From a virus, in the IMG/VR virus record IMGVR_UViG_3300035187_004050, positions 1-43,203 of that record: a DNA stretch of 43,203 nucleotides; one strand, 5' to 3'. The notes under the pieces are model-generated. The model saw only the letters and a program-made list of their open reading frames with translations, did not search any database and was not told the origin of the DNA. Below are positions 755 through 42,945 of this stretch, one piece after another (the stretch's first letter is position 1; each line of letters begins with the position of its first letter). Made by a program: the position numbers and the translations under genes.

Positions 755-788
755 CAAAAGAAACAACAAACCAACAAAACATAGCAAT

Positions 789-1154
789 ATGAACAAAGAC
801 ATCACAAAACGCTCCCACGCACAAAACAAGTTCCTCCGCCGGAAAGATAACCGAGCGGGCAATCATCCCGCCAAGGGCACTCCCATCCCTGGCCAGCTCA
901 CTCCCACTGAAATCGCCCATAAAGCACGCAGGCGTTCCCGCCGCCTCGCAAAAGCAAAGTCCGCCAGCTCCCTCCTTCCCTCTCGCCTCGAAAAGCTCCA
1001 GTCCCGCCTTGCCCATCTCGAATCCCAGGAAAAGCCACAAGATTCCAAGCATCTCCAAGCTCTTGAGCATGAGATCACTGACACGAAGCTGGCAATTTCC
1101 TACACCGAGAAAGAAATCTCCCGCGCCTCCCGCATCCTCTCCGCTCTGTCTTAA
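789..1154 (+). CDS. Hypothetical basic coiled-coil protein
   Basis: A 121-residue protein with no recognised family. The first 60 residues are rich in Lys/Arg (KRSHAQNKFLRRK, RRRSRRLAKAK), suggesting nucleic-acid contact. Residues about 65-115 form a heptad-like helix (SRLEKLQSRLAHLE). The start at 789 is supported by the leader CATAGCAATATGAAC, nearly identical to the one before the gene at 42239. A function in RNA or DNA binding is inference only. Confidence 0.7.
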   Translation: MNKDITKRSHAQNKFLRRKDNRAGNHPAKGTPIPGQLTPTEIAHKARRRSRRLAKAKSASSLLPSRLEKLQSRLAHLESQEKPQDSKHLQALEHEITDTKLAISYTEKEISRASRILSALS

Positions 1155-2143: not shown

Positions 2144-2314
2144 ATGAAGTCCCATCCCACCTCCCCACCCTTCCAACTCCTCGCTGAAATTCTCTTCGTC
2201 ATCCACTTCTTCCTCCTTGCCTTCGTCTTCGTTAACTTTGTCAAGCACGAGGCGGAAAAGTGGAGCAAACAGCAGAGAGCAACCAAACAAACCCTCACCC
2301 ACATCGCAAAATGA
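2144..2314 (+). CDS. 56-residue membrane protein
   Basis: ATG at 2144, TGA at 2312-2314. Residues about 11-33 form one hydrophobic helix (FQLLAEILFVIHFFLLAFVF), followed by a charged helical tail rich in Lys, Gln and Glu. It starts 4 bp after the previous stop, and its own stop overlaps the next ATG (ATGA at 2311), indicating translational coupling. Function unknown. Confidence 0.55.
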   Translation: MKSHPTSPPFQLLAEILFVIHFFLLAFVFVNFVKHEAEKWSKQQRATKQTLTHIAK

Positions 2315-2567
2315 ATAACACCGCACAACAACTCCGCCTCGCTGCGGACATCGTAGAGACTTCTTAAAAACAAAGCGTCCAAAGGAAGAACTAAAAACAA
2401 CACTTGATGTTTTACGTGAGTTTAAAAGTTGCGAGTCTGGCCAGGAGTGGCTGGCTATCCCATTTGTGGCTTGGGCAAAGTTGGAGCAGATGCGAGAGTT
2501 TCTCGAACATCTTGTTGAAGACACACCGCTGCAACCAGATACACTAGCTTACATAAACCGCGAGTAA
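2311..2567 (+). pseudogene. Probable frameshifted small gene
   Basis: Frame 1 begins at ATG 2311 and encodes a phage-like N-terminus (MNNTAQQLRLAADIVETS) before stopping at TAA 2365-2367. The overlapping -1 frame then stays open to TAA 2565-2567 and reads like real protein (KTKRPKEELKTTLDVLREF, then WLAIPFVAWAKLEQ). That second frame has no ATG, GTG or TTG before the middle of its sequence, so the two halves probably belonged to one gene. No classical slippery heptamer lies in the correct register, so an indel is more likely than programmed frameshifting. Confidence 0.45.
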
Positions 2568-2627
2568 TCGAAACCCGTTCCCAGACGGGTCGAGACGGCC
2601 TGAGCAACCGCTCCTGATGAGAAGCTC
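2562..2627 (+). ncRNA. Type II hammerhead ribozyme candidate 1
   Basis: All core parts occur in type II order: C2569-GAAA (2570-2573); stem III CCCGT/ACGGG (2574-2578 with 2585-2589, loop TCCCAG); U2590 and C2591, with predicted cleavage after C2591; stem I GAG-A-CGG/CCG-CTC (2592-2598 with 2608-2613, A2595 bulged); CTGATGA (2614-2620); then G2621. Stem II is short (TC 2568-2569 with GA 2621-2622). It may be extended by GAG(T) 2562-2565 with GCTC 2624-2627, or the same GCTC may pair with GAGC (2602-2605) in the stem I loop as a pseudoknot. It begins at the stop codon of the preceding frame. Self-cleavage is established for this RNA class; activity here is inferred. Confidence 0.8.
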
Positions 2628-2658
2628 CATTTGAGATAACACAAACATATCCACGACA

Positions 2659-13178: not shown

Positions 13179-14612
13179 ATGATCGCCCGCCTTCAAAACA
13201 TTGGTTACACACCCATCTCAAGTATCACCGTCGGAGAACGTCTGCGCCGCCGTGACGCTAAATTCCAGCAAGCCGTGGAGGAGAAGATGCAATCCCTCCA
13301 AGAGTTCGGCCCCTTCCAGCCACTCCTTATTGACGAAGACAACAATCTCATCGACGGCGGGACGCGTCTTGAAGCCTACATCCAGCTCGGCGAAACTGAC
13401 GTCCCCACCGTAGTTGCCATCGGCATCGACGCGGCCAAGAAAATGGTCATGGAGATTGAAGCCAATGAGCAACGCAACGCGCTTACCTGGCAGGAAAAAG
13501 CTGTCGGCATCTACAAAATTCACACCGCCGAGTCCGCCAAGTATGAAGACTGGGGCACACGAGCCACCGGCAGCCTGTTCAAAATCTCCCACGCCAGCGT
13601 TGCGCAGGCTCTTCTCTTTGCTAAGGAACTCATCCGTGGTGACAAAGAACTCTGGGAATGCGACACCGCTATGGCGGGACGTGACCTTCTTCTCAAGCGC
13701 CGCGAAGCAGCCATCACCGCCTCTATTGCGCAGACCCAAAAGAATGTCTTCCAAGTCCCTGTGGCGGAGAAAAAACCCACCCACTCTCCCGGCATCCTCA
13801 ACATCACCCTCGGCACGCCCGGCACAGCTCCCGCGCCAGTCACCGAAAAGAAAAAGGACCACCTCCCATCCAACGTCATCACCCGCATCCCCATCTCCAC
13901 GATGATTTTCCACGCGGACTGTCATGAGTTCATGGAGAACCAACTGAAACCCTTTTCCATAGACCACATCGTCACTGACCCACCTTACGCCATTGACATG
14001 GCTAACCTCGAAGGCATTCAAAACCTGGATTCCACCGCTGGCGAGCACGAGGTCGAAGAGAACCTCGAACAGCTCCCCCGCTTTATCGAGAACTCTTACC
14101 GTGTTCTCAAAGCTGATGGCTTTCTTGTTTTCTTCTGCGCCTTCCAGCACTGGGAGAAGATGCGTGACTGGGGCAACGCGGCGGGTTTCAAAGTCCAAGA
14201 CTGGCCCCTCATCTGGGCAAAACCCAACGGCTGCAAGAACAACGCACCTCATGCGAACTGGACAAAATCCATTGAACCTGTCATGGTCATGCGCAAGGGC
14301 AAGGCCAACCTTCGCACACCGATGACAAAGTGTCACATGGAATGCGACGCCACAACGGATCGCATGTGCCAGTCCCACCCGTTTGCCAAGCCTCACGAAT
14401 GGCTCTCAGAAATGATCTGGAAACCCCTTGTCTCCCCAGGGACAACCATCTACGATCCTTACATGGGAGGCGGTTCGATTCTCCGCAGTGCTATCTTAAA
14501 AGGCGCGCGGGTCATCGGCACGGAGAAGAAAGAGCACCATTATGTGCAGGCTCTTGAAAGTATCAAGAAAGTCTTCACGCAGGTGCAAGGGAAACATGTT
14601 GAATTTTCTTGA
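13179..14612 (+). CDS. ParB-like domain fused to a DNA methyltransferase
   Basis: A 477-residue fusion. Residues about 10-80 are a ParB/sulfiredoxin-type domain (SSITVGERLRRRD; LIDGGTRLEAY at 57-67). Residues about 100-200 are helical. From about 245 there is an S-adenosylmethionine-dependent amino-methyltransferase: DPPY (267-270) comes before the SAM-binding motif DPYMGGGS (426-433), the beta-class order, so N6-adenine or N4-cytosine is the expected target. Such fusions occur in phages and can protect phage DNA from host restriction. No cognate restriction enzyme gene is seen. Confidence 0.9.
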   Translation: MIARLQNIGYTPISSITVGERLRRRDAKFQQAVEEKMQSLQEFGPFQPLLIDEDNNLIDGGTRLEAYIQLGETDVPTVVAIGIDAAKKMVMEIEANEQRNALTWQEKAVGIYKIHTAESAKYEDWGTRATGSLFKISHASVAQALLFAKELIRGDKELWECDTAMAGRDLLLKRREAAITASIAQTQKNVFQVPVAEKKPTHSPGILNITLGTPGTAPAPVTEKKKDHLPSNVITRIPISTMIFHADCHEFMENQLKPFSIDHIVTDPPYAIDMANLEGIQNLDSTAGEHEVEENLEQLPRFIENSYRVLKADGFLVFFCAFQHWEKMRDWGNAAGFKVQDWPLIWAKPNGCKNNAPHANWTKSIEPVMVMRKGKANLRTPMTKCHMECDATTDRMCQSHPFAKPHEWLSEMIWKPLVSPGTTIYDPYMGGGSILRSAILKGARVIGTEKKEHHYVQALESIKKVFTQVQGKHVEFS

Positions 14613-14890: not shown

Positions 14891-15228
14891 TCTACCTCGC
14901 CTCACCATACTCCCACCCCGACCCCGCCATTCAAGAAGAAAGGTATCAGAAAGCCCTGCACGCAGTTTATTACTACGCACAAAACGGGCTAACGGTCTAT
15001 TCTCCTATCGTTCACTGGCACCACGTCGCGGCAGTCTTCGGCCTTCCTAAAGACGCTGCTTTTTGGGAAGCTCAAAACCTGGCCATGCTCGAACGCGCTA
15101 GTCAATTTATTGTGCTTAACATAAGCGGCTGGAAAGAATCCAAAGGTGTGACGCAAGAGCTCACCTGGGCTGAGGATTTAAACATCCCGGTCTCTTTTAC
15201 CGATCCCGAAGAAAGAAAGCCACTATGA
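14887..15228 (+). CDS. DUF1937 family, nucleoside deoxyribosyltransferase-like
   Basis: A 113-residue protein. IYLASPYSHPD at the start, SPIVHWHHVA, DAAFWEAQNLAMLERA and GWKESKGVTQELTWA fit DUF1937, a relative of nucleoside 2-deoxyribosyltransferases. It may act on nucleotides or bases, consistent with the DNA polymerase immediately downstream (ATGA overlap), but its substrate is unknown. Confidence 0.82.
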   Translation: MIYLASPYSHPDPAIQEERYQKALHAVYYYAQNGLTVYSPIVHWHHVAAVFGLPKDAAFWEAQNLAMLERASQFIVLNISGWKESKGVTQELTWAEDLNIPVSFTDPEERKPL

Positions 15229-17684
15229 TCCCCACCGAATTCCCATCCATCCCTTCCGAGCATCGCCTCGCCATTGTCGGTGACTTTCCTCGTTCCCATG
15301 AGACTTCCGCTAAGCGTCCGTTCGCCGGACCAAATCTCATGTATCTTGAAAAGGCACTTTCCCGCGCGGGCATAATGCGGGCGAATTGTCTCGTCACAAA
15401 CATCTGCCGATCCCAACCTCCCACCTCCTATGGAAACTCTTCCTTCTTCATGTTCGACGGACCCGACATCCAAGAAGGTCTCGCCCAGCTTCGTAGTGAT
15501 TTTGCGCAATTCCAGCCAAACTGCGTTCTTCTACTCGGCGATCTGGCGCTTAAAGCCGCCGGAGTTCATCACTCGCTTGACGCGTTCCGTGGTTCAATCT
15601 TTAGTGGCTTCAACGACAGACACAAATGCGTAGCCACCTTCCATCCCACGCGCCTGTTCCAAACTTATGACGACATGCCGTTTTTCCTGCACGATCTTAA
15701 CCGCGCTGTGGCTCAAAGTAAGTTCCCTGAACTGCGTCTGCCGAAGAGAAAGCTTGAAATTAACCTACAACCGAATGAAATTATCGCGCGGTTGGTGGCC
15801 ATACTGCAAGATAAACCTCTTGTCTCTCTCGACATCGAGGGGGGAATTCCCAACGAGCGTGCAGCCAAAGTCGAATACAAGCACCGCAACGGAATCACAT
15901 GTTGTTCGGTTTCTACCGACCCATCAAGCGCCTTCATTATCCCTTTTGAAATCTATGACGTGGTTACTCTCCAACGCATCCTCATCCCCTTCTCCAAGCT
16001 CCTAGCCGACAAGTCCATCCCCAAAGTCCTCCAAAACGGCCTCTACGACTACACCGCTCTTGCCTGGCACTTCCGCTGCCCCATCAACAACATCGCCCAC
16101 GACACAATGTTCTCTGGCTGGGAAATCTACCCAGAGCTTCCCAAAGGTCTCGGCACCCAAGCCTCCATCTGGACGGAAGAACCCTATTACAAATCTGAGC
16201 GCACAATCGACGACAAAGACACGCACTACCGCTACTGTTGCAAAGACGCCGCTGTCACCCTGGAAATCCATCAAGCCCACATGCGAGCGATGACACCCGA
16301 ACAGCGTGCCCATTATGACTTCAACATGTCCATCATGGAACCGCTGCAATACATGTCCCTGCGCGGTTTTAACTACGACATTGACGCGTCCAACCACCGC
16401 CTTGCAGAACTCCGTGCGCAACAAGCGGAGCTTCAAGATGCCTGCAATCTCCACACACCATCCCCAGTCAACCTCAACTCCGCTCCACAGCTCATCAAAA
16501 CCCTCTACCACGAGTTCGGCTTTGAGAAGCAATTCAAGAAAGAGGCTGGTCGCAAAACCACCACCCTCACCGCTGATAAAGGGGCTCTCCTCAAGCTCGT
16601 GGTATCTCAAGGTCAAAGAGCACATCCCTTTCTTATCAACCTGCTTTCCTGGAAAAAAGTTGAAGGCAAGGCCAAGCAACTTGACGTTTACCGCGACCCC
16701 GACGGTCGCATCCGTTGCTCTTACAATCCTGTCGGCGCTGACACTGGGCGGTTGTCCTGCGCACAATCCACAACCGGCTCCGGCACCAACCTCCAAACCA
16801 TCTCCAAGGAAAACCGTAAGTTCTACATCGCCGACCCAGGTAAGGTCTTCTTCCAGTGTGACCTTGAAGGCGCTGACGGCTGGACGGTAGCCGCTCACTG
16901 CGCCGCTCTCGGTGATACCACCATGATCGACGACTATTACGCGAAGATCAAACCCGCCAAAGTGCTCGCTCTCATGCAGCTTCAGCGCGAAGGTAAGCTC
17001 CCAGATGTCAAAGTCCCCATCAACAAGCTCACGCGGCCTGAAATCAAAGCCCTCATCAAATCCACCAAGCTACCAGAAACCCTTTATGGCGTCTGCAAAG
17101 TCGTCCAACACGGCAGTAACTACGACATGCAGCCAAACAAGATGTCCGAGAACTTACTTGAAAAGAACTTCACGCACAGCGAAGAGTTCTCCATCATGTA
17201 TGTTCCGCCTCAAGAATGCAAAATCATCCAAGCCCTTTACTTTGAACGCTACCACGGTGTTCACTCCTATCAAGATTATGTCAAACAACAGCTCAAAACT
17301 GGCAGATCGCTGTCCTGCGCGTCTGGTCATGTCAGAAAGTTCTTCGGCAGGCCGGATGATGGCACAACCATACGAACAGCACTCGCGCATGAACCGCAGG
17401 CAAACACGACCTACGTTACCAACCTCGCCATGCAACGCCTTTGGCAAGATCCTGAGAACCGTCGATCCGACAACTCCCTAATCATCGAACCCATCCACTC
17501 CGTCCACGACGCCCTTTGCGGACAATTCCCCATCGAACTCGCCGAATGGGCCTGCGCCAAAATCAAATCCTACTTCAACAATCCCGTCCGAGTAGCCAAC
17601 GACACAATCGTAATCCCTTATGAAGGCGGTTACGGGCAGTCTTGGTATCACACTGGCGAGGACAACCGCCTTGGAGAAATTTAA
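15225..17684 (+). CDS. Family A DNA polymerase with N-terminal UDG-like domain
   Basis: An 819-residue replicative polymerase. Residues about 10-165 resemble a family 4 uracil-DNA glycosylase fold (IVGDFPRSHE, RPFAGPN, a TNICRSQP segment and ATFHPTR). A DEDDy 3'-5' proofreading exonuclease follows (D203/E205 in SLDIEG, N271/D275 in QNGLYD, D341 in YCCKDAA). The polymerase palm and fingers have motif A CDLEGAD (D546), motif B K625-x7-Y633-D and motif C VHDA (D762). The metal-binding aspartates are present, but motif B ends YD rather than the usual YG, and motif C is HDA rather than HDE. The UDG-like part may be inactive or structural. Confidence 0.92.
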   Translation: MIPTEFPSIPSEHRLAIVGDFPRSHETSAKRPFAGPNLMYLEKALSRAGIMRANCLVTNICRSQPPTSYGNSSFFMFDGPDIQEGLAQLRSDFAQFQPNCVLLLGDLALKAAGVHHSLDAFRGSIFSGFNDRHKCVATFHPTRLFQTYDDMPFFLHDLNRAVAQSKFPELRLPKRKLEINLQPNEIIARLVAILQDKPLVSLDIEGGIPNERAAKVEYKHRNGITCCSVSTDPSSAFIIPFEIYDVVTLQRILIPFSKLLADKSIPKVLQNGLYDYTALAWHFRCPINNIAHDTMFSGWEIYPELPKGLGTQASIWTEEPYYKSERTIDDKDTHYRYCCKDAAVTLEIHQAHMRAMTPEQRAHYDFNMSIMEPLQYMSLRGFNYDIDASNHRLAELRAQQAELQDACNLHTPSPVNLNSAPQLIKTLYHEFGFEKQFKKEAGRKTTTLTADKGALLKLVVSQGQRAHPFLINLLSWKKVEGKAKQLDVYRDPDGRIRCSYNPVGADTGRLSCAQSTTGSGTNLQTISKENRKFYIADPGKVFFQCDLEGADGWTVAAHCAALGDTTMIDDYYAKIKPAKVLALMQLQREGKLPDVKVPINKLTRPEIKALIKSTKLPETLYGVCKVVQHGSNYDMQPNKMSENLLEKNFTHSEEFSIMYVPPQECKIIQALYFERYHGVHSYQDYVKQQLKTGRSLSCASGHVRKFFGRPDDGTTIRTALAHEPQANTTYVTNLAMQRLWQDPENRRSDNSLIIEPIHSVHDALCGQFPIELAEWACAKIKSYFNNPVRVANDTIVIPYEGGYGQSWYHTGEDNRLGEI

Positions 17685-20628: not shown

Positions 20629-20874
20629 ATGTTTGACTTTCCACGATACATCATGACAGAAATACAAAGTAACCACATTCAGCTAACAGGTTGCTGTCCA
20701 AAACCTGAATGCCAACCAAAAGAGGGTCTTGGGCCCAAAATGGAAGAGCTACCAGGCAGCGAGGAAGCTAGATACTTACACTGCTCGAGGTGCCACAGTA
20801 TGTGGGTGGTTAATAAAACAGCCCAGGCTGAGCCTCGAGTTCCATCTGTCTTTCCTTTGCTCTCCTCATACTAG
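20629..20874 (+). CDS. Small zinc-ribbon protein at the convergence point
   Basis: An 81-residue protein; an alternative start is 20653. Cysteines GCCPKPEC and CSRCHSMW suggest a zinc ribbon. It is the last gene of the rightward arm. Its 3' end overlaps the end of the giant late gene on the other strand by 65 bp. No clear bidirectional terminator is visible between the two arms. Confidence 0.6.
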   Translation: MFDFPRYIMTEIQSNHIQLTGCCPKPECQPKEGLGPKMEELPGSEEARYLHCSRCHSMWVVNKTAQAEPRVPSVFPLLSSY

Positions 20875-23800
20875 CCGGTGACCGTTGTGCTCCAAGCTGC
20901 CGATAAATGCTCCGCATAATCTGCTCCTGTTCCACATTCCCCGCAGGCGGTGGTTGATACCCAATCGCCTGCGCAATATCGCTAATACTACCTGCCGTCT
21001 GCGCCGTGGCCTTCCCACGGATGTCAGACGGCATTTGTTCTTTCACCTTTTGCAAAGCGATTCTCTGGCGAAGGTTACCCATCATATCTTTCAACGCAAC
21101 CTGACGACCGCGACCTTCGAGCCTTTGGTCGATCAAAAGATTAGCCTCGCGCATAAGGGTCTTCTGCGCAATCTCTGGACCGAGCATCAGGCTTTCTTCC
21201 ACGCGTTTTGCGGCGAGTCGCATATCATTCTGCGCTGCTTCATTTGTCTTGCTGATAATCCTTTCCATCTCCTTGTTCTTAAACATCGCGCCAGACCTAA
21301 ACCCAGCCATCGCCATAGGCAAATTCGCATCAGGGTTTTCCGCCTGGAACTCCTGACTCAAAGCCTCCGCCATGCGTTTAATCCCACCAGGACCACCTGC
21401 TTTAAACGCCGCACCAAGATCTTTTTCCTGCACCAGCGCTTTGCCCATTTTCCACATACTATTCACCATGCTCGCCGTCGGCCCAAGCACACTAGCCGCG
21501 CTGACTCCATCATACGCGTTCACACCCATAAAACCACCCAGTGCAAACCGGGAATGCAAGTCCGCCGGAATCCCAAGGCTCTCCGCCATAGAACTCATCA
21601 CTCCATAGCTCAACGCCTGAGTGAGCAACGGGTCATCCGTCATCTCATTCAGCGCTTTCAAGCCGTTCCCTTTGATCTCGTCACCAGTCAAATCTTCCAT
21701 CAGTGCAATCCCAGCTCCGATAAACGGAAAGCCCAGAATCCCAGCTGCTGCAAGTTGCCCGGAGATCATCGTTGCAAACGCAGTCCTTGCAGCCCTGCGA
21801 TCACTTTGATCCAACTCAGGAAAGTTCACCTTGTCAAAACCGTGACGGTAGTAGCGAGCCAGGTCCGTGAACCTTCCCCGCACATAGCTCGACAATGCGT
21901 AAACCATATATCCCGCGCTGCCCAGCTTACCAAAGTAAACAGGCCGTTCAGTCCGACCACCAGAGTTATTCGCTGTCAATTCAAACAGCGCCGCACTCTT
22001 CACGGCTTCGTCGTGACTCAAACCCTTCTTCTTCGCAAGGCGGTAGCCTGTCAGCAAACCCACAAGATTGTTGTGCTGTGTGAAAACAGAATACAGACCC
22101 ATCGCGGCATTTGAATACATATTCAAAGGCTTGGTCAAAATCTTTGACGGAGAAAGCATTTCGCGATCCTGGGCAATCCCGCGTAGAGTTTCCTGGTTCA
22201 CACCGACTTGCTGGTAAACTTCTTGCAGCGGTTGTGTGAGGCTTCTTCTCCAGTTGACTTTAAGCATTGCAGCCTCATCCTTATCCGGCCAGTTTTCCCA
22301 AATCGCCGCGTCGTCGTGGTAGCCGATTTTGGACTTAAGCAGCTTAGCAATAACCCCAGCCGCAGACTTCTCCGCACCGACGGTGGTGCGAAGTGCTGTA
22401 AGCATCGAGTGACCTTGGTAAACCGCTTCATGAATATGCGTTTGCAGCGGTTGAAACAATTCCGCCAGATGCCCAGGAAGGTTAAACCCAATGTGCCAGA
22501 CGGCATTTGCCTTGTTCACAATGCGCCAGAACTTAGGATCGCTTTCTTTGGCTTGCTTGTAAAATTCCATGAACTGTGTCTTCTCACGGAGTTGATCCTT
22601 GAGCTCTGGGTTGTTCATGTGGTACTTCAACTCTTCGCCCAGGGCGGTCATGTAGCCGACCTTGTGCGCAGCTTGTGTGTAGGTGAGATGCTGCTCGAGC
22701 ATGTCGAGATGCTCAGGTCCACCGGAAATGCGACGTTTCACACCAGGAAGGTAAATGTCATTGCTTTTAGCTTCGCGAAGAACGTCCGCTAGGAATGAGC
22801 TTTCACCAAGAAGGGCGTCGCGATCAGCGGGGTCAATGTCCATTGAATCAATGAGATCCTTCAAGCGGCCCTCTTTTGATTCAAGTAGGTCAACAACTTT
22901 GGAATCAACAGTGAATTCGCTTTTATACTTCTTGTCAAAGTCTCGCGTGATTGGTTCACCCACAGCCTTCCAGCCTTTAGCCTCCAGCTCTTTCCTCATC
23001 GCCAAAGCCTCGGACCCTTTGTTAAAGTCCAGGACCTTGCTCTCACCGTTCGCATCAGTGTAGCGCTGAATGATTGGCTTAAACCTGCGAAGGCTTTGGA
23101 AGTTCGGGCTCTCAGCATAGTGTTTAGCTAAACCACCCAACGTCGCCTGCTTGTCTTGAATAATCTCAACAAGTTTTCGTGCCTCATTTGGATCAGTAAA
23201 ACGAGCCATTGCTTCTTTCATCGCAACCTGATCACCTGCCTGCACCGCGTCAAACAGCTTCTCCGCCACGACACGCGCTTCCTTATGCCGTAGCACAGGC
23301 TCAGCGCCTTGGTCAAAGCTCTTCATCCTCGTGACAAGATTCACGGCAAACATACGAGCCTTGTTTGTCTCGTGTTCGACATTGTGCTTTTGCGTCAACC
23401 TTGTCGATTGCTCTTTCTGCATCAAGAACTGAGCCATCGCTTTTTGCTGGTCAGGATTATACATCTTAACCTCAGCGCGGTGCTCTGGCGACATTGCAAG
23501 CCAGTTAAAGCTCACAGTGCCGTCAGGGTTTTGCACGATCGCACTCACTTTAGAGTCCTGCGCTTCAAGGTTAATCCGCTTAGTCAAGTCATAAAGCGGT
23601 TTGCTGTTAGCCAGCTTGAACCAAGGTAACGATTTGTCTACAACAATATTATCCGTCGCACCCTTGTGCCCAAAGATCGGCGTCAGGCTCTCAGAAACTT
23701 GTTCAGTCACCGCGTTCCCAGAGTTCAACAGCTTAAATCCAGGCTCAATAAAACTCCGATAAGTCGCCATGAATCCACCTAGACCTTGCGTGGCGTTGTT

Positions 23801-26800
23801 GAAGAAATTCCCCAGCGTCTGCTTAACGCCCTCAACCGGATAAGGGCTCCGTGCGAACTGCACGTTTTCCATCTTGTTCATCAAGCTTGCGGGATTAACG
23901 TCCAGGAACTCCACCGCCTGCGCGGTCTGCCATTCAGCCTCGCGGAACTTCTGCCGAACAGAATCAACCATTTCTTTCACACGAAGAACCTGGCCCATTT
24001 TGTTCTTATCCCCACTAAGTTTCCAATACATCCTGGCGTGCTTCAACGCATCCTGCACACGGCGGATGGTGTTTTCAACAATAGTGCGAATCGGTTTTGG
24101 CAACAACAGCAACGCTTTAATCGGCTTGTTAGCCTGCGCGGCACTTGTCACCATCATCGCATGCGCGTTCGCCATCCACTCTTCTGGCTCGAGATTTCCC
24201 AACACATCCCGCACGCCGTCAAGATTCTTCATCTCTTTCGGCAGGTAGAGCTCCCGGATAATTTCTTCAACGTCCCTCAAAACTGCTGGGTCATTGCCTT
24301 TTACCCAGGCGATTGCTTCGTCAAACATTTGCTTGGTTTCTGGACCGTATTCTCCACGCATGGCTTTGCCAAAGGCTATGTGGCCCATTTCGTGGGCGAG
24401 GACGTAGCTCATGGCCTTGGTCTTGTTTGGACCCTGGAAGGCTTTAGTGGAGAAGAACGCTTGGGCGATGTCTTTGAAGGAGGCTCCGTAGACGGTTCCG
24501 CCCTCTGCCATTTGCACATCCCAGGGGCCTTTAACGCGTTCGACGCCACCACGGCGCTCAATAGACAGCTTAACGCGCTCAGCGGTAGCGCTTTTGTCCA
24601 GTGAAGACCAAGGCTTAGTGAGATCAAGTTCCTTGTCTGCAATGGTGAAGTCGTTGTTATTTTTATCTTTTCCGTTAAAAACGAAGCCCTTACCGTCAAA
24701 CTCATTAATACCAATTAAGCGCGTCGGCAGTCCAGTATTTTTATTAATCGCTGTAACGGCATGCTTAAACCGTGTTCTGTCATCTTCTCGGAGATACTTA
24801 TCGGCAAAGCCAGGAAACAGGTCAGTCGCTTTGGCGAACTGAGCACCTTCGCCAGTAGTTCCAGCCATACTTCCAAACCTGGCTTCCCCCGCAGCAAACA
24901 TCTGCGTGATCCTGACAAAATCATCCACCGTCGCAGGAATTTCACCTTCCAGCACGCCAGCTTCTCTTGCCCAGGCGGTGGCGAATTCTTTAATTGGAAG
25001 TGGCTGGCCGGTTGTGAAGTGAATCGTCAACGGGTCAATGTCATTCGCCGCAAGTTGTGGAAAACCCTTTGCCTTCCATTCCTTCGCCAGTGCAAGGTTC
25101 TTTTCCCGCACTCCAAACGGCATGTTTGCAAACCTTGCTGCCGCGTCTGCTGGGCTAAGCTCAACGCCAACTTTCTTCGCAAGCGCGACCATGAAATCAC
25201 GAGCAAGATTTTGATCCTGCGCCGTCTGACTAATTTCCGGAGTGTCTTCCTCATCAAGCTCGCGAGTGATTTCTTCCACAATCAGCTCCTGCATCGCTTC
25301 TTCGCGGGCAGGCTCGCTAGCTGTGTCAACCTCTTCAATCGCAGCTTCCATTTCAGCGATTGCGTCTGGGGTAATTTCTTCGTTGAGCGGAACAGTTTTA
25401 AGCTGGCTACTAGCTTCAACGCGTTCATCAAGAGTCTTCAGGCCTGCTTGGAACTTCAGCAGTTTTTGCGTGAGCGGAAGCGGAGCATGCTCAGTGGCAA
25501 CCTTGCTCAGCCAATTCAAACCCTTAGCTCGGTTAGCTGGGTCGATCATTTGACTGGCGATAATAAAAAAGCGGTCGTCGTCGGTTGGTTTTAGAGCTTT
25601 TCCAGCGATCAGAATGCGTTCTTCCATCGTGGCATTCTTGTCTACAGTCGCTTTAGAAGCACCGACAGGACGACCACCTTTAGGCTTTTCTCTCGCCGGT
25701 GTATCAACTGCTTTTGCCGCAGCAACGCGTTCTTCCACGGCAGCTTTCAAAGGATCGGCTGCTTTTGCGGCAAGCTTTTCAGCTTCAAGCTTAGCCCAAT
25801 TAGCGGCACGCTGTTCTGCTCTGCTCAAAGTAGCGACTTTGCGAGTAGCGTTAACGTTAGCCTCGCGAACAGTCTGACCTTCAGCCTTCGCTTCTTTAGC
25901 AGCCTTCTTCTGCGCCTTCACCACTTTCGGAAACTTCCCAGTCGCAAGCAGGCTCGCCGTGATCAGCTCATACCGGTCGTCGATCGAGCCTTCGAATTTC
26001 CCAGTCAACGCGTTGTTGTGTTCTTCCCACAACTTCGGAAACTCCGGCACAAAGTTCTCACCCTGCGCGATTTCCATATGTTTCATGCGGATGAGCTTAA
26101 TCGCGTTGTCAGACAGCTTAGTGCCCAACGCTTGCTGGTATTGCTCAACCGTGCGTTGCTCCACAGGAGTGCTGAGCAGCGTGTCTGGCAGCTTCAAGTC
26201 TTCCTCAACAAGCCCCATGACAGAATCTAAGTTAGCGTCGCTTTTCGCAATACGACTCAAATTCCCACCCTTGACCTTGTTGATTTGCTTCAGCTTCTGC
26301 GCATATTCTTGCACGAGCGTCTTTGCTGGGTCAAAACCAATTACCGAGGGGTTCTGCATCAAGACCTTTGGATCAATGCCGGTCAGAACGTCAGGGAGCG
26401 CTGAGTTAACTTCACGAAGCTTACTCCAGGTGTTCTGGAAATTCTCCGCTTCAAGCTTAACCGCAGTGCGGTGACCTTCCATCGTTGCGGCGACTTCGTT
26501 GTTTTTGGAGATGAAACGGCCGATGTCCACACCAAGTTCAGCTTCTTTTTGAAACTTAGCGAGACTGTTGTCGATGGCTTCAAGAGACTCGCGTGTAACT
26601 TCGCCACGGGTTTTCTCCGCGTTGATTTGTGCCTGCGTTGGCTTGAGCGGAGCATCTGTTGGTTCCCACGCAAACCTAGTCTTCGTGAAGTTCGGAATAT
26701 CCGCAGCCATGAACGGAATGTTCGAGGCGAGGTTGGCGAAGAGATAATCCTTGTTCAGCACCGCGTCTGGGCCTTGCTGAACGATGTCAAGCCCTGTAAA

Positions 26801-27526
26801 GCCGACGTTAGCAAGCGCTTCACCAGCCACGTAGCCAAGGGCTTTGTCACGGAAGGTATCGACGGTCTCACCGAGAACCTGCCTGGAAAGCCCAGTCGCA
26901 GCGTCAGTGACTGTGTGCGTAGCGGGAGCGAGGACATTCTTGCCCTGCATGAAGCCAGCTTTGTTCAAGAAAGACCCTGGAGTCGCAGCACTGCGAAGGA
27001 CGGCTTTAGAACCGACTTCCGACAACTTACCACCAACATAAGGCGCAACACCGCCGATAATCGCGTCGCTCACATTGCCCGATTTACCGTAGGCGTCGAA
27101 AGCAGACAGGCCGGAAGTAAGCGCAAGGCCGGCCTTACCACCTACCACAGCGCCGGGAGGCCCAGCGGTGGCGAGACCAATAGCTCCACCAGCTACCATA
27201 GGAACAAAGTTAAGCACTTGTCGTGGGAGTTCTCTACCCGCCGCGCGACTAGCCTCCGGTGTCACACCAAACTGATCGCCCACCCAGCCAAATGCTTCCG
27301 CAGTCCAATCGTCAACTGGGCCACTTTGAATAGCCTCATCCACATTTGCGCTCCAGCCGCGGATCATGTTCTTCCACGCGGGAGAATCTGCAACTTCTTG
27401 GTAAGACGGATCGCCAGTTGCGCTCGCGCCGATTTTAGCAAAGTCAGCCAAGGAGCTCTCCTGCGGAAGGAGGCCCTTGGCTTTTGCAGCTTCGTGCTGG
27501 CGTTGGATTGTGAGAAAGTCGGGCAT
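20810..27526 (-). CDS. Giant virion/ejection-type protein with zincin motif
   Basis: A 2,238-residue protein, by far the largest here and last in the late operon. Residues about 107-165 are Gly/Ala-rich and hydrophobic, suitable for membrane interaction. A zinc-metallopeptidase signature HEMGH (1045-1049) lies in a helix. The segment around residue 500-620 is Ala/Lys-rich and helical. The C-terminal 450 residues resemble terminal domains of large polyvalent phage proteins (AKKKGLSHDEAVKSAALFE, then GYMVYALSSYVRGRFTDLAR). By size, position after connector genes and lack of a tape measure, it is probably packaged and ejected with DNA. Peptidase activity is inferred from the motif only. Confidence 0.75.
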   Translation of the reverse strand: MPDFLTIQRQHEAAKAKGLLPQESSLADFAKIGASATGDPSYQEVADSPAWKNMIRGWSANVDEAIQSGPVDDWTAEAFGWVGDQFGVTPEASRAAGRELPRQVLNFVPMVAGGAIGLATAGPPGAVVGGKAGLALTSGLSAFDAYGKSGNVSDAIIGGVAPYVGGKLSEVGSKAVLRSAATPGSFLNKAGFMQGKNVLAPATHTVTDAATGLSRQVLGETVDTFRDKALGYVAGEALANVGFTGLDIVQQGPDAVLNKDYLFANLASNIPFMAADIPNFTKTRFAWEPTDAPLKPTQAQINAEKTRGEVTRESLEAIDNSLAKFQKEAELGVDIGRFISKNNEVAATMEGHRTAVKLEAENFQNTWSKLREVNSALPDVLTGIDPKVLMQNPSVIGFDPAKTLVQEYAQKLKQINKVKGGNLSRIAKSDANLDSVMGLVEEDLKLPDTLLSTPVEQRTVEQYQQALGTKLSDNAIKLIRMKHMEIAQGENFVPEFPKLWEEHNNALTGKFEGSIDDRYELITASLLATGKFPKVVKAQKKAAKEAKAEGQTVREANVNATRKVATLSRAEQRAANWAKLEAEKLAAKAADPLKAAVEERVAAAKAVDTPAREKPKGGRPVGASKATVDKNATMEERILIAGKALKPTDDDRFFIIASQMIDPANRAKGLNWLSKVATEHAPLPLTQKLLKFQAGLKTLDERVEASSQLKTVPLNEEITPDAIAEMEAAIEEVDTASEPAREEAMQELIVEEITRELDEEDTPEISQTAQDQNLARDFMVALAKKVGVELSPADAAARFANMPFGVREKNLALAKEWKAKGFPQLAANDIDPLTIHFTTGQPLPIKEFATAWAREAGVLEGEIPATVDDFVRITQMFAAGEARFGSMAGTTGEGAQFAKATDLFPGFADKYLREDDRTRFKHAVTAINKNTGLPTRLIGINEFDGKGFVFNGKDKNNNDFTIADKELDLTKPWSSLDKSATAERVKLSIERRGGVERVKGPWDVQMAEGGTVYGASFKDIAQAFFSTKAFQGPNKTKAMSYVLAHEMGHIAFGKAMRGEYGPETKQMFDEAIAWVKGNDPAVLRDVEEIIRELYLPKEMKNLDGVRDVLGNLEPEEWMANAHAMMVTSAAQANKPIKALLLLPKPIRTIVENTIRRVQDALKHARMYWKLSGDKNKMGQVLRVKEMVDSVRQKFREAEWQTAQAVEFLDVNPASLMNKMENVQFARSPYPVEGVKQTLGNFFNNATQGLGGFMATYRSFIEPGFKLLNSGNAVTEQVSESLTPIFGHKGATDNIVVDKSLPWFKLANSKPLYDLTKRINLEAQDSKVSAIVQNPDGTVSFNWLAMSPEHRAEVKMYNPDQQKAMAQFLMQKEQSTRLTQKHNVEHETNKARMFAVNLVTRMKSFDQGAEPVLRHKEARVVAEKLFDAVQAGDQVAMKEAMARFTDPNEARKLVEIIQDKQATLGGLAKHYAESPNFQSLRRFKPIIQRYTDANGESKVLDFNKGSEALAMRKELEAKGWKAVGEPITRDFDKKYKSEFTVDSKVVDLLESKEGRLKDLIDSMDIDPADRDALLGESSFLADVLREAKSNDIYLPGVKRRISGGPEHLDMLEQHLTYTQAAHKVGYMTALGEELKYHMNNPELKDQLREKTQFMEFYKQAKESDPKFWRIVNKANAVWHIGFNLPGHLAELFQPLQTHIHEAVYQGHSMLTALRTTVGAEKSAAGVIAKLLKSKIGYHDDAAIWENWPDKDEAAMLKVNWRRSLTQPLQEVYQQVGVNQETLRGIAQDREMLSPSKILTKPLNMYSNAAMGLYSVFTQHNNLVGLLTGYRLAKKKGLSHDEAVKSAALFELTANNSGGRTERPVYFGKLGSAGYMVYALSSYVRGRFTDLARYYRHGFDKVNFPELDQSDRRAARTAFATMISGQLAAAGILGFPFIGAGIALMEDLTGDEIKGNGLKALNEMTDDPLLTQALSYGVMSSMAESLGIPADLHSRFALGGFMGVNAYDGVSAASVLGPTASMVNSMWKMGKALVQEKDLGAAFKAGGPGGIKRMAEALSQEFQAENPDANLPMAMAGFRSGAMFKNKEMERIISKTNEAAQNDMRLAAKRVEESLMLGPEIAQKTLMREANLLIDQRLEGRGRQVALKDMMGNLRQRIALQKVKEQMPSDIRGKATAQTAGSISDIAQAIGYQPPPAGNVEQEQIMRSIYRQLGAQRSPASMRRAKERQMELEAQPGLFY

Positions 27527-41644: not shown

Positions 41645-41752
41645 GGCGGGAACTCTACCACACTGCGGGAAACATTGAAAGGGAAATTTTGGGTTTATTT
41701 GCCCAGGCGCTTGTTGTTGCTGGAGAGGAGTAGGTTTGAGAAGGGAAGTGGT

Positions 41753-41807
41753 TTGTGTCACCCGCGGGGGTGGGATATAAATAGCGCAGCAGACCCCACG
41801 TGGGCAA
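41753..41807. promoter_or_regulatory. Divergent early/late promoter and operator region
   Basis: Rightward: TTGTGT (41753-41758), 17-bp spacer, TATAAA (41776-41781). Leftward, read on the minus strand: TTGCCC (41807-41802), 18-bp spacer, TATTTA (41783-41778). The two -10 elements overlap. A 10-bp palindrome CCCACGTGGG (41795-41804) and an inverted repeat CACCC-GCGG-GGGTG (41759-41772) lie in place to act as operators. The remaining sequence from 41645 to 41895 carries only leader sequence and a small hairpin (GAGGC/GCCTC near 41840-41855). Confidence 0.55.
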
Positions 41808-41865
41808 AGTGCTTGAGGTTTTGGTATAGGGTGACAAGCGAGGCGCGGTTGCCTCCGGTCCAACT

Positions 41866-41895
41866 GAAACAAACAAAACTAGAAAGCATAGCAGT
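41866..41895 (+). promoter_or_regulatory. A/C-rich leader with shared AACTAGAAAGCATAGC element
   Basis: AACTAGAAAGCATAGC (41877-41892) directly precedes the ATG at 41896. The same 16 bases occur at 42220-42235 before the ATG at 42239, and a shorter version (CATAGCAATATGAAC) precedes 789. It appears to be a translation-initiation leader specific to early genes. Confidence 0.6.
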
Positions 41896-42135
41896 ATGAG
41901 AATCCGCACCATCAAAACCCGTATCATTAGCATGACAGCAAATGAACACGCCGCATTTATCCGCGCCCTTGAGCAGGCGAAAGAGGGCCGCACCGTGCAT
42001 AGTGGAAGCGTGGAGCTTGACGACGGGAGCCAGTTGTGTGTTTGCGTGCAATCTCAAGAGGAGATTGACGAGCGCGAGAAAGCTGCCCGTGATGCCCGTA
42101 ATGCGCGGGAGGAGGAGCGCCGTAATCGCTATTAA
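41896..42135 (+). CDS. First early protein, charged and helical
   Basis: A 79-residue protein. Its second half is extremely charged (EIDEREKAARDARNAREEER). An internal Met (MTANEHAAF) is an alternative start, but the shared leader element points to 41896. It is the first gene after the rightward promoter and is followed directly by hammerhead candidate 2. Confidence 0.65.
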   Translation: MRIRTIKTRIISMTANEHAAFIRALEQAKEGRTVHSGSVELDDGSQLCVCVQSQEEIDEREKAARDARNAREEERRNRY

Positions 42136-42137
42136 GA

Positions 42138-42196
42138 GTCGAAACGGCATAAGCCGTCGCAAGGGATTAGCCTACCTTGCCTGAAGAGACAGGCTA
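42138..42196 (+). ncRNA. Type II hammerhead ribozyme candidate 2
   Basis: Complete type II core: stem II 5' strand GTC (42138-42140), GAAA (42141-42144), stem III CGGC/GCCG (42145-42148 with 42153-42156, loop ATAA), U42157, C42158 with predicted cleavage after it, stem I GCAAGG/CCTTGC (42159-42164 with 42175-42180), CTGAAGA (42181-42187, allowed variant of CUGANGA), stem II 3' strand GAC (42188-42190). TAGCCT in the stem I loop (42168-42173) is complementary to AGGCTA (42191-42196), a possible 6-bp pseudoknot that could stabilise the fold. It starts 3 nt after the stop of the preceding gene and lies 81 nt before the next ATG. Confidence 0.88.
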
Positions 42197-42238
42197 CTTG
42201 AACAAAATCAAACTAAACAAACTAGAAAGCATAGCGAT

Positions 42239-42883
42239 ATGAACACGACAAACAGCGACAACAACAACGGCAATCTTGACAGCATCTTGAACATCCGCGC
42301 AGTTAGCGGCGGCGAGCGGGGGAATAAAGAGGCGGGTAAAAAGTATGACTACCTCATCCCGAAGGTTCTTTTCTTGGAACTCATCGGGGAGGTATTCGAC
42401 AAAGAGGTCGAGCGTAGCAACAAGGAGAACGCGAAAAGCGGCGGGGCGGTGAGTCAGTTCCTCCACAGCTACGGCGCGACGGCTGATAAGATGGAAAAGG
42501 CGGGGATTGATCCGTTTCCCGCTATTCGGTATGACCTGCGAAACGCCGCTACGCGGGAAGTGGTGGCGGCGAATGTGACGGAAGCGGAGGGCAATAAATG
42601 GCTCGCGGATTACGGCGGCGACGTAAAACCCGTTTGGGAGCAGCTTCCCGGCGGAACGTTTGACGGGGATTGTGTGGAGAAATGGCTAGAACTCATGGAA
42701 TTCAAAGCGCCGCGCAATGGCGGGAATCGCAAGAGCGCGAAGGAGGTCAAGATGGAAACGATTCTCACGACGCTTTCCATTCCGGGCATCTCATGGAGCA
42801 TGCTCTCCAGCGCCTACCCTGACATTACCGAGGCTGACCTTGAAGCCTACAAAGCGAAACTCGCCGCGAAAGCAGGGGAATAA
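42239..42883 (+). CDS. Unknown early protein in a ribozyme/terminator-bounded unit
   Basis: A 214-residue protein with no recognised family. An Asn/Gly-rich N-terminus is followed by a mostly helical body (DYLIPKVLFLELIGEVFDKEVE) and a charged helical tail. It has the shared early leader, lies downstream of a hammerhead candidate and ends directly in a strong terminator, so it is probably made in quantity at the very start of infection. A host-takeover role is possible but not shown. Confidence 0.72.
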   Translation: MNTTNSDNNNGNLDSILNIRAVSGGERGNKEAGKKYDYLIPKVLFLELIGEVFDKEVERSNKENAKSGGAVSQFLHSYGATADKMEKAGIDPFPAIRYDLRNAATREVVAANVTEAEGNKWLADYGGDVKPVWEQLPGGTFDGDCVEKWLELMEFKAPRNGGNRKSAKEVKMETILTTLSIPGISWSMLSSAYPDITEADLEAYKAKLAAKAGE

Positions 42884-42945
42884 TAGGCACAAGTCGGAGG
42901 CAGGGCTTTCATTAGTCCTGCCTCTCTTTGTGCCTATTTCCCTTT
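42884..42945 (+). terminator. Strong two-part intrinsic terminator
   Basis: TAGGCACAA (42884-42892) pairs with TTGTGCCTA (42928-42936), and inside it GAGGCAGG (42897-42904) pairs with CCTGCCTC (42917-42924) around a 12-nt loop. TTTCCCTTT follows. It begins one base after the stop at 42883. Confidence 0.8.

What the first reader, a model, noticed from the sequence alone, without database searches (positions are those of the whole stretch)
42138..42196. Type II hammerhead ribozyme with possible loop pseudoknot in the early leader region
Every conserved core element (GAAA, stem III ending in U-C, stem I, CTGAAGA, stem II) is present in type II order with perfect stems. In addition the stem I loop TAGCCT can pair with AGGCTA just beyond stem II. 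The chance of all parts aligning by accident is low. A self-cleaving RNA between the first two early genes of a dsDNA phage suggests mRNA processing.
Basis: partly seen in the sequence, partly recalled or inferred. Interest (0 to 1): 0.88.

Follow-up and report, generated by a model that had tools for sequence, protein, structure and literature searches.

The report
Phage intercistronic type II hammerhead ribozymes
The sequence is almost certainly a genuine self-cutting RNA (a type II hammerhead ribozyme with a pseudoknot), placed just after one early phage gene and before the next; this is a new member of a known kind, and the phage carries a second one that a related phage conserves.

Summary
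Window 42138-42196 holds every part of a type II hammerhead ribozyme: stem II, GAAA, stem III, U-C, stem I, CUGAAGA, and a 6-bp loop I/3'-tail pseudoknot. Predicted cleavage is after C42158. Rfam's type II model does not detect it. A covariance model built here from 15 other phage loci scores it 63.4 bits, E 2.6e-14. Nine same-length loci, this one included, show double compensatory changes in stems I and III and in the pseudoknot.

A related phage (76-80% nt) keeps it in synteny with four compensatory pair changes. The reported copy lies in a module (79-aa ORF plus ribozyme) absent from that relative.

Type II hammerheads, this pseudoknot, and phage clusters flanking single genes were published in 2011, so this is a new member of a known kind.

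New here: in 192 non-redundant model hits (nearly all from other IMG/VR contigs), the upstream ORF's stop codon ends 2-12 nt before GAAA in 80% (random 4.4%), never closer than 2 nt. An ATG follows 10-40 nt after stem II in 86%. I infer that cleavage splits polycistronic phage mRNA into single-gene messages with protected ends. Cleavage in RNA is unproven.

The parts
42138..42196 (+). Type II hammerhead ribozyme, site 2 (the finding), including the pseudoknot tail
   Evidence: R1 covariance model 63.4 bits, E 2.6e-14; core and stems read directly
42158..42159 (+). Predicted cleavage site, C42158^G42159
   Evidence: Position of C17 after U16.1 in the hammerhead numbering; established chemistry, not measured
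42168..42173 (+). Loop I strand of the pseudoknot (UAGCCU)
   Evidence: Pairs with 42191-42196; pseudoknot helix 92.6% paired with 3 doubly changed pairs across 9 loci
42191..42196 (+). 3'-tail strand of the pseudoknot (AGGCUA)
41896..42135 (+). 79-aa upstream ORF; its UAA ends 5 nt before GAAA; no Pfam or PHROG match; absent from the relative
42239..42883 (+). 214-aa downstream ORF, start 80 nt after the cleavage site; relative in IMGVR_UViG_3300022745_000008 (52% best segment, 65% over alignment)
42213..42243 (+). Second copy of a leader (AAACTAGAAAGCATAGC-NN-TATGA); the first lies at 41877-41900
2567..2632 (+). Second type II hammerhead ribozyme, site 1: UC/GA stem II, CCCGU/ACGGG stem III, GAG-A-CGG/CCG-CUC stem I, CUGAUGA, pseudoknot GAGC 2602-2605 / GCUC 2624-2627; cleavage predicted after C2591
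   Evidence: RF02276 29.1 bits, below the cut-off of 37; R1 34.3 bits, E 1.2e-6; ortholog L005 4191-4255 minus strand, 51.8 bits
2659..2967 (+). 102-aa ORF downstream of site 1, conserved with its hammerhead in the relative (72% identity)
42874..42944 (+). Very stable hairpin that closes the first early transcription unit (terminator-like)
   Evidence: -47.9 kcal/mol, z -8.7

Best explanation
The element is a type II hammerhead ribozyme that cuts the phage's early polycistronic mRNA in cis after C42158, between the 79-aa ORF and the 214-aa gene. Shown by sequence: the full catalytic core, three stems and a pseudoknot, with covariation across phage relatives. Shown by position: it fills the space between a stop codon and the next start site, in the sense direction of the early genes. 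Inferred from established hammerhead chemistry: the upstream message ends in the stem III hairpin with a 2',3'-cyclic phosphate, and the downstream message begins with a 5'-OH and the stem I hairpin. Inferred: this gives each gene its own message with protected ends and independent dosage, and lets genes be swapped upstream without affecting the downstream gene.
For: The model from 15 other phage loci hits the site at E 2.6e-14. Nine same-length loci pair in 97.8% of cells, with 28 double changes against 8.1 in shuffles; slid registers drop to 33-44%. The second copy in the same phage is conserved in synteny in a relative, with compensatory changes in stem III (CCCGU/ACGGG to CCGCC/GGCGG) and stem I (C-G to U-A). 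In 192 non-redundant hammerheads the stop codon ends 2-12 nt upstream of GAAA in 154, against 4.4% at random positions; none is closer than 2 nt; ATG lies 10-40 nt past stem II in 165. The 70 hits outside my search pattern behave the same, 56/70. Arrays of 4-7 hammerheads have mostly one-gene spacing. In vitro and in vivo cleavage of comparable phage clusters, and a halovirus transcript 5' end within 3 nt of a hammerhead site, are published (PMC3088659).
Against: No RNA data for this phage. Site 2 has no ortholog in the one relative found. Rfam's model does not detect it. Without the pseudoknot, RNAfold prefers an alternative outer helix (-21.8 against -17.2 kcal/mol) that would block stem II and the pseudoknot. 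In the 2011 study 4 of 18 consensus hammerheads were inactive. Bases fixed by my pattern strengthen the model's core.
Confidence: 0.8

Rival explanations
1. Translation-gated switch: the ribosome that terminates at UAA42133-42135 covers stem II and GAAA, so cleavage waits until upstream translation falls. The alternative helix UUAAGAGUC/GGCUACUUGA is the off state. The ribozyme then sets mRNA lifetime by use of the upstream gene.
For: Stop codons cluster 2-12 nt before GAAA and never overlap it; 43 of the 47 stops found at -2 are UAG, whose G is part of stem II. An alternative fold of lower energy exists here.
Against: The alternative fold was seen in one sequence only and the pseudoknot was not in the energy model. 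Stop proximity also follows from tight packing of phage genes.
Confidence: 0.2
2. A ribozyme that has decayed or is a passenger: it arrived with the 79-aa gene module and has no use to this phage.
For: The module is absent from the relative; functions of phage hammerheads are unproven (PMC6155905).
Against: The core and all stems are intact, and the second copy shows compensatory conservation.
Confidence: 0.12
3. RNA circularisation or trans-splicing, as with retrozymes or viroids: paired hammerheads release and ligate RNA circles.
For: Two hammerheads lie in the same direction about 3.6 kb apart if the contig ends join.
Against: Perreault et al. looked for ligated or circular products and found none; the distance and gene content are unlike retrozymes.
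Confidence: 0.03
4. A chance resemblance to the hammerhead core.
For: Loose core matches occur at about 0.28 per shuffled window.
Against: Full motif 0/400 shuffles; E 2.6e-14; a second conserved copy.
Confidence: 0.01

Closest known systems
Type II hammerhead ribozymes of bacteria and phages (Perreault et al. 2011, PMC3088659)
   Same: Core, permutation, loop I/3'-tail pseudoknot of 4 or more bp, short stem II, clusters flanking single phage genes
   Different: A new phage lineage; a stem I of 6 bp with a 10-nt loop that Rfam's model does not score; the stop-codon placement rule is not in that paper's main text (no occurrence of 'stop codon')
Rfam RF02276 Hammerhead_II
   Same: Site 1 matches full length at 29.1 bits
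   Different: Both sites are below the cut-off of 37 bits; site 2 is not reported at all
HHphage of haloviruses HF1/HF2
   Same: Hammerhead before an early phage gene, 13 nt from its start codon; transcript 5' end mapped within 3 nt of the cleavage site (PMC3088659)
   Different: Variant core, archaeal hosts
Theta ribozymes of gut phages (PMC10879173)
   Same: Small self-cleaving RNAs in phage genomes
   Different: HDV-like fold; placed at tRNA 3' ends

Membership tests
Type II hammerhead ribozyme | Core GAAA ... UH ... CUGANGA in the order of an open stem II | tested here: met
   Read at 42141-42187 and 2570-2620
Type II hammerhead ribozyme | Stems I, II and III paired, with covariation in relatives | tested here: met
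   Nine loci 97.8% paired, stems I-III 100% paired; syntenic pair for site 1
Type II hammerhead ribozyme | Loop I/3'-tail pseudoknot (common, not obligatory) | tested here: met
   6 bp at site 2, 4 bp at site 1; covariation in 3 pairs
Type II hammerhead ribozyme | Independent covariance-model match | tested here: met
   R1: 63.4 and 34.3 bits
Type II hammerhead ribozyme | Self-cleavage 3' of C17 | not testable with these tools
   Needs in vitro transcription
Rfam RF02276 curated set | Score at or above the gathering cut-off of 37 bits | tested here: not met
   Site 1 29.1 bits; site 2 no match. The Rfam model's stem I differs; 18 hits above the cut-off in 15 related loci

The most novel reading that the evidence does not exclude
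Type II hammerheads of phages are a standard intercistronic cassette (stop codon, ribozyme, ribosome site, start codon) whose cleavage is coupled to translation termination and which marks exchange points where phage genes are swapped.
Probability: 0.3. Interest if true: 0.7.

Novelty: new member of a known kind. Interest (0 to 1): 0.42.

Why it matters
The roles of prokaryotic hammerheads are described as an open question (PMC6155905, 2017). The tight placement between a stop codon and the next start, seen across many phage contigs, turns that question into simple reporter tests. It also shows that Rfam's model misses a subclass that is common in viral metagenomes.

Tried and rejected
Rfam at the gathering score and at E <=10: nothing at site 2. 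RF02276 searched in the relative missed its hammerhead, although R1 finds it at E 2.9e-11, so that search's first look is lossy. blastn and tblastn against cultured phages: no close relative. Relatives of the 79-aa protein: none. More relatives of the 214-aa and 102-aa proteins: only the same contig. Host by helicase in bacterial genomes: none. R1 on phage PaP3, whose published hammerhead has a variant core: no match. Swap-point test: homology breaks at 12 of 15 hammerhead junctions against 113 of 252 others (p 0.014); small and not independent, so only suggestive. Sigma-70-like promoter scan: none found.

Full report
What is there. The window is a 43,203-base IMG/VR phage record. At 42138-42196 on the + strand it reads GTC-GAAA-CGGC-ATAA-GCCG-T-C^GCAAGG-GATTAGCCTA-CCTTGC-CTGAAGA-GAC-AGGCTA. 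That is a type II hammerhead: stem II is open, stems III and I are closed by loops, and every core base is present. TAGCCT in loop I can pair with AGGCTA just after stem II. No shuffle in 400 reproduced the full motif.

Covariance test. Rfam's Hammerhead_II model (RF02276) does not report the site. The Rfam consensus has an interrupted 9-bp stem I with a short loop (alignment), unlike the 6-bp stem with a 10-nt loop seen here. I therefore scanned IMG/VR with a core pattern. Of 135 matches, 119 had stems I and III of 3 bp or more, and 64 of those also had a pseudoknot of 4 bp or more. A model (R1) built from 15 of these loci, without the window, hits 42138-42200 at 63.4 bits, E 2.6e-14. My pattern fixed about 20 core and flanking bases, so the model's core is strict by construction; the window was not used to build it. 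On eight same-length loci plus the window, 97.8% of cells pair against 33-44% in slid registers, and double changes occur in stem III, stem I and the pseudoknot. The larger same-class alignment agrees.

A second copy. At 2567-2632 there is another type II hammerhead: RF02276 29.1 bits, R1 34.3 bits, E 1.2e-6. A related phage, IMGVR_UViG_3300022745_000008, carries it in the same place, before the same 102-aa gene (72% identity). Stem III has changed from CCCGU/ACGGG to CCGCC/GGCGG (three pairs changed on both sides) and stem I has one further double change, while the pseudoknot GAGC/GCUC is kept. DNA similarity between the two phages begins at window 2566, the 5' edge of the ribozyme; the genes before it differ.

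Context of the reported copy. In the relative, the conserved upstream region and the leader lead straight to the homolog of the 214-aa gene. In the window a 79-aa ORF plus the hammerhead sits between them, bounded by two copies of the leader AAACTAGAAAGCATAGC. So the hammerhead belongs to a module gained here or lost there. The 214-aa gene is followed by a very stable hairpin (-47.9 kcal/mol). The relative's contig runs through this hairpin into the homologs of window 203 onward, so the window's ends probably join and the two hammerheads lie about 3.6 kb apart in one early gene block.

A placement rule. R1 found 205 hits in 114 of the sources searched, 192 non-redundant, three of them from this phage and its relative. 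The stop codon of the upstream ORF (40 codons or more) ends 2-12 nt before GAAA in 154 of 192, against 4.4% at random positions of the same loci, and is never closer than 2 nt. An ATG with an open frame follows 10-40 nt after stem II in 165 of 192. The 70 hits that do not match my search pattern behave the same, 56 of 70, so the pattern did not cause it. A stop at exactly -2 is UAG in 43 of 47 cases, with its G forming part of stem II. Eleven loci hold 4-7 hammerheads, most spaced by about one gene. At the reported site the UAA ends 5 nt before GAAA. At site 1 a UAA also ends 2 nt before GAAA, but its frame has no ORF of 40 or more codons with a start, so its true upstream gene is uncertain; the nearest qualifying stop is at -22.

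Mechanism. Shown: sequence, structure, covariation and placement. Inferred from hammerhead chemistry: cleavage after C42158 leaves the upstream message with a 3' hairpin and a 2',3'-cyclic phosphate, and the downstream message with a 5'-OH and a hairpin. Both ends should resist the usual bacterial decay starts; this rests on general knowledge and was not tested here. The simplest function is to split early polycistronic mRNA into single-gene messages. A translation-gated version is possible: a terminating ribosome would cover stem II and GAAA, and an alternative helix without the pseudoknot is 4.6 kcal/mol more stable than the bare active fold. That is one sequence only and the pseudoknot is not counted (its duplex alone is about -7.1 kcal/mol).

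Known or new. Type II hammerheads, the pseudoknot and its importance for rate, clusters flanking phage genes, in vitro and in vivo cleavage, and the mRNA-processing proposal are all in Perreault et al. 2011 (PMC3088659). De la Pena et al. 2017 (PMC6155905) call the role in prokaryotes an open question. I found no mention of the stop-codon rule in the papers I could read; subscription literature was not available, so priority is not established. The element is a new member of a known kind.

Noticed in passing
window 2311-2568: Two adjacent frames (MNNTAQQLRLAADIVETS... and ...LREFKSCESGQEWLAIPFVAWAKLEQM...INRE*) look like one gene broken near an A-run at about 2366: a sequencing error, a real frameshift or a programmed one.
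   Followed up: no
window 780-792, 41887-41899, 42230-42242; L002 2992, 4403: A shared leader CATAG-NNN-ATATG lies directly before several starts in both phages, without an obvious Shine-Dalgarno: a possible phage-specific translation or promoter element.
   Followed up: partly
window 15225-17684: Family A DNA polymerase with an N-terminal uracil-DNA glycosylase domain in one 819-aa ORF.
   Followed up: no
window 13179-14612: ParB-like domain fused to an N6/N4 DNA methyltransferase in one 477-aa ORF.
   Followed up: no
window 20810-27526: A 2238-aa ORF on the minus strand, the largest of the phage, not annotated here.
   Followed up: no
window 41740-41840: Highly conserved non-coding stretch upstream of the first early gene (CACCCGCGGGGG-GGGATATAAATAGCGC ... 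GGTATAGGGTGACA) in both phages; probably an early promoter or operator region, with no sigma-70-like match.
   Followed up: partly
L052, L007, L100, L106, L108, L116, L084: Arrays of 6-7 type II hammerheads within a few kb, most about one gene apart; good material for the function question.
   Followed up: partly
L009, L013, L014, L018, L023, L060: A second subclass of phage type II hammerhead with a 4-bp stem II (GATC/GATC or GGTC/GACC), a short GTAA-like loop I and no pseudoknot.
   Followed up: no
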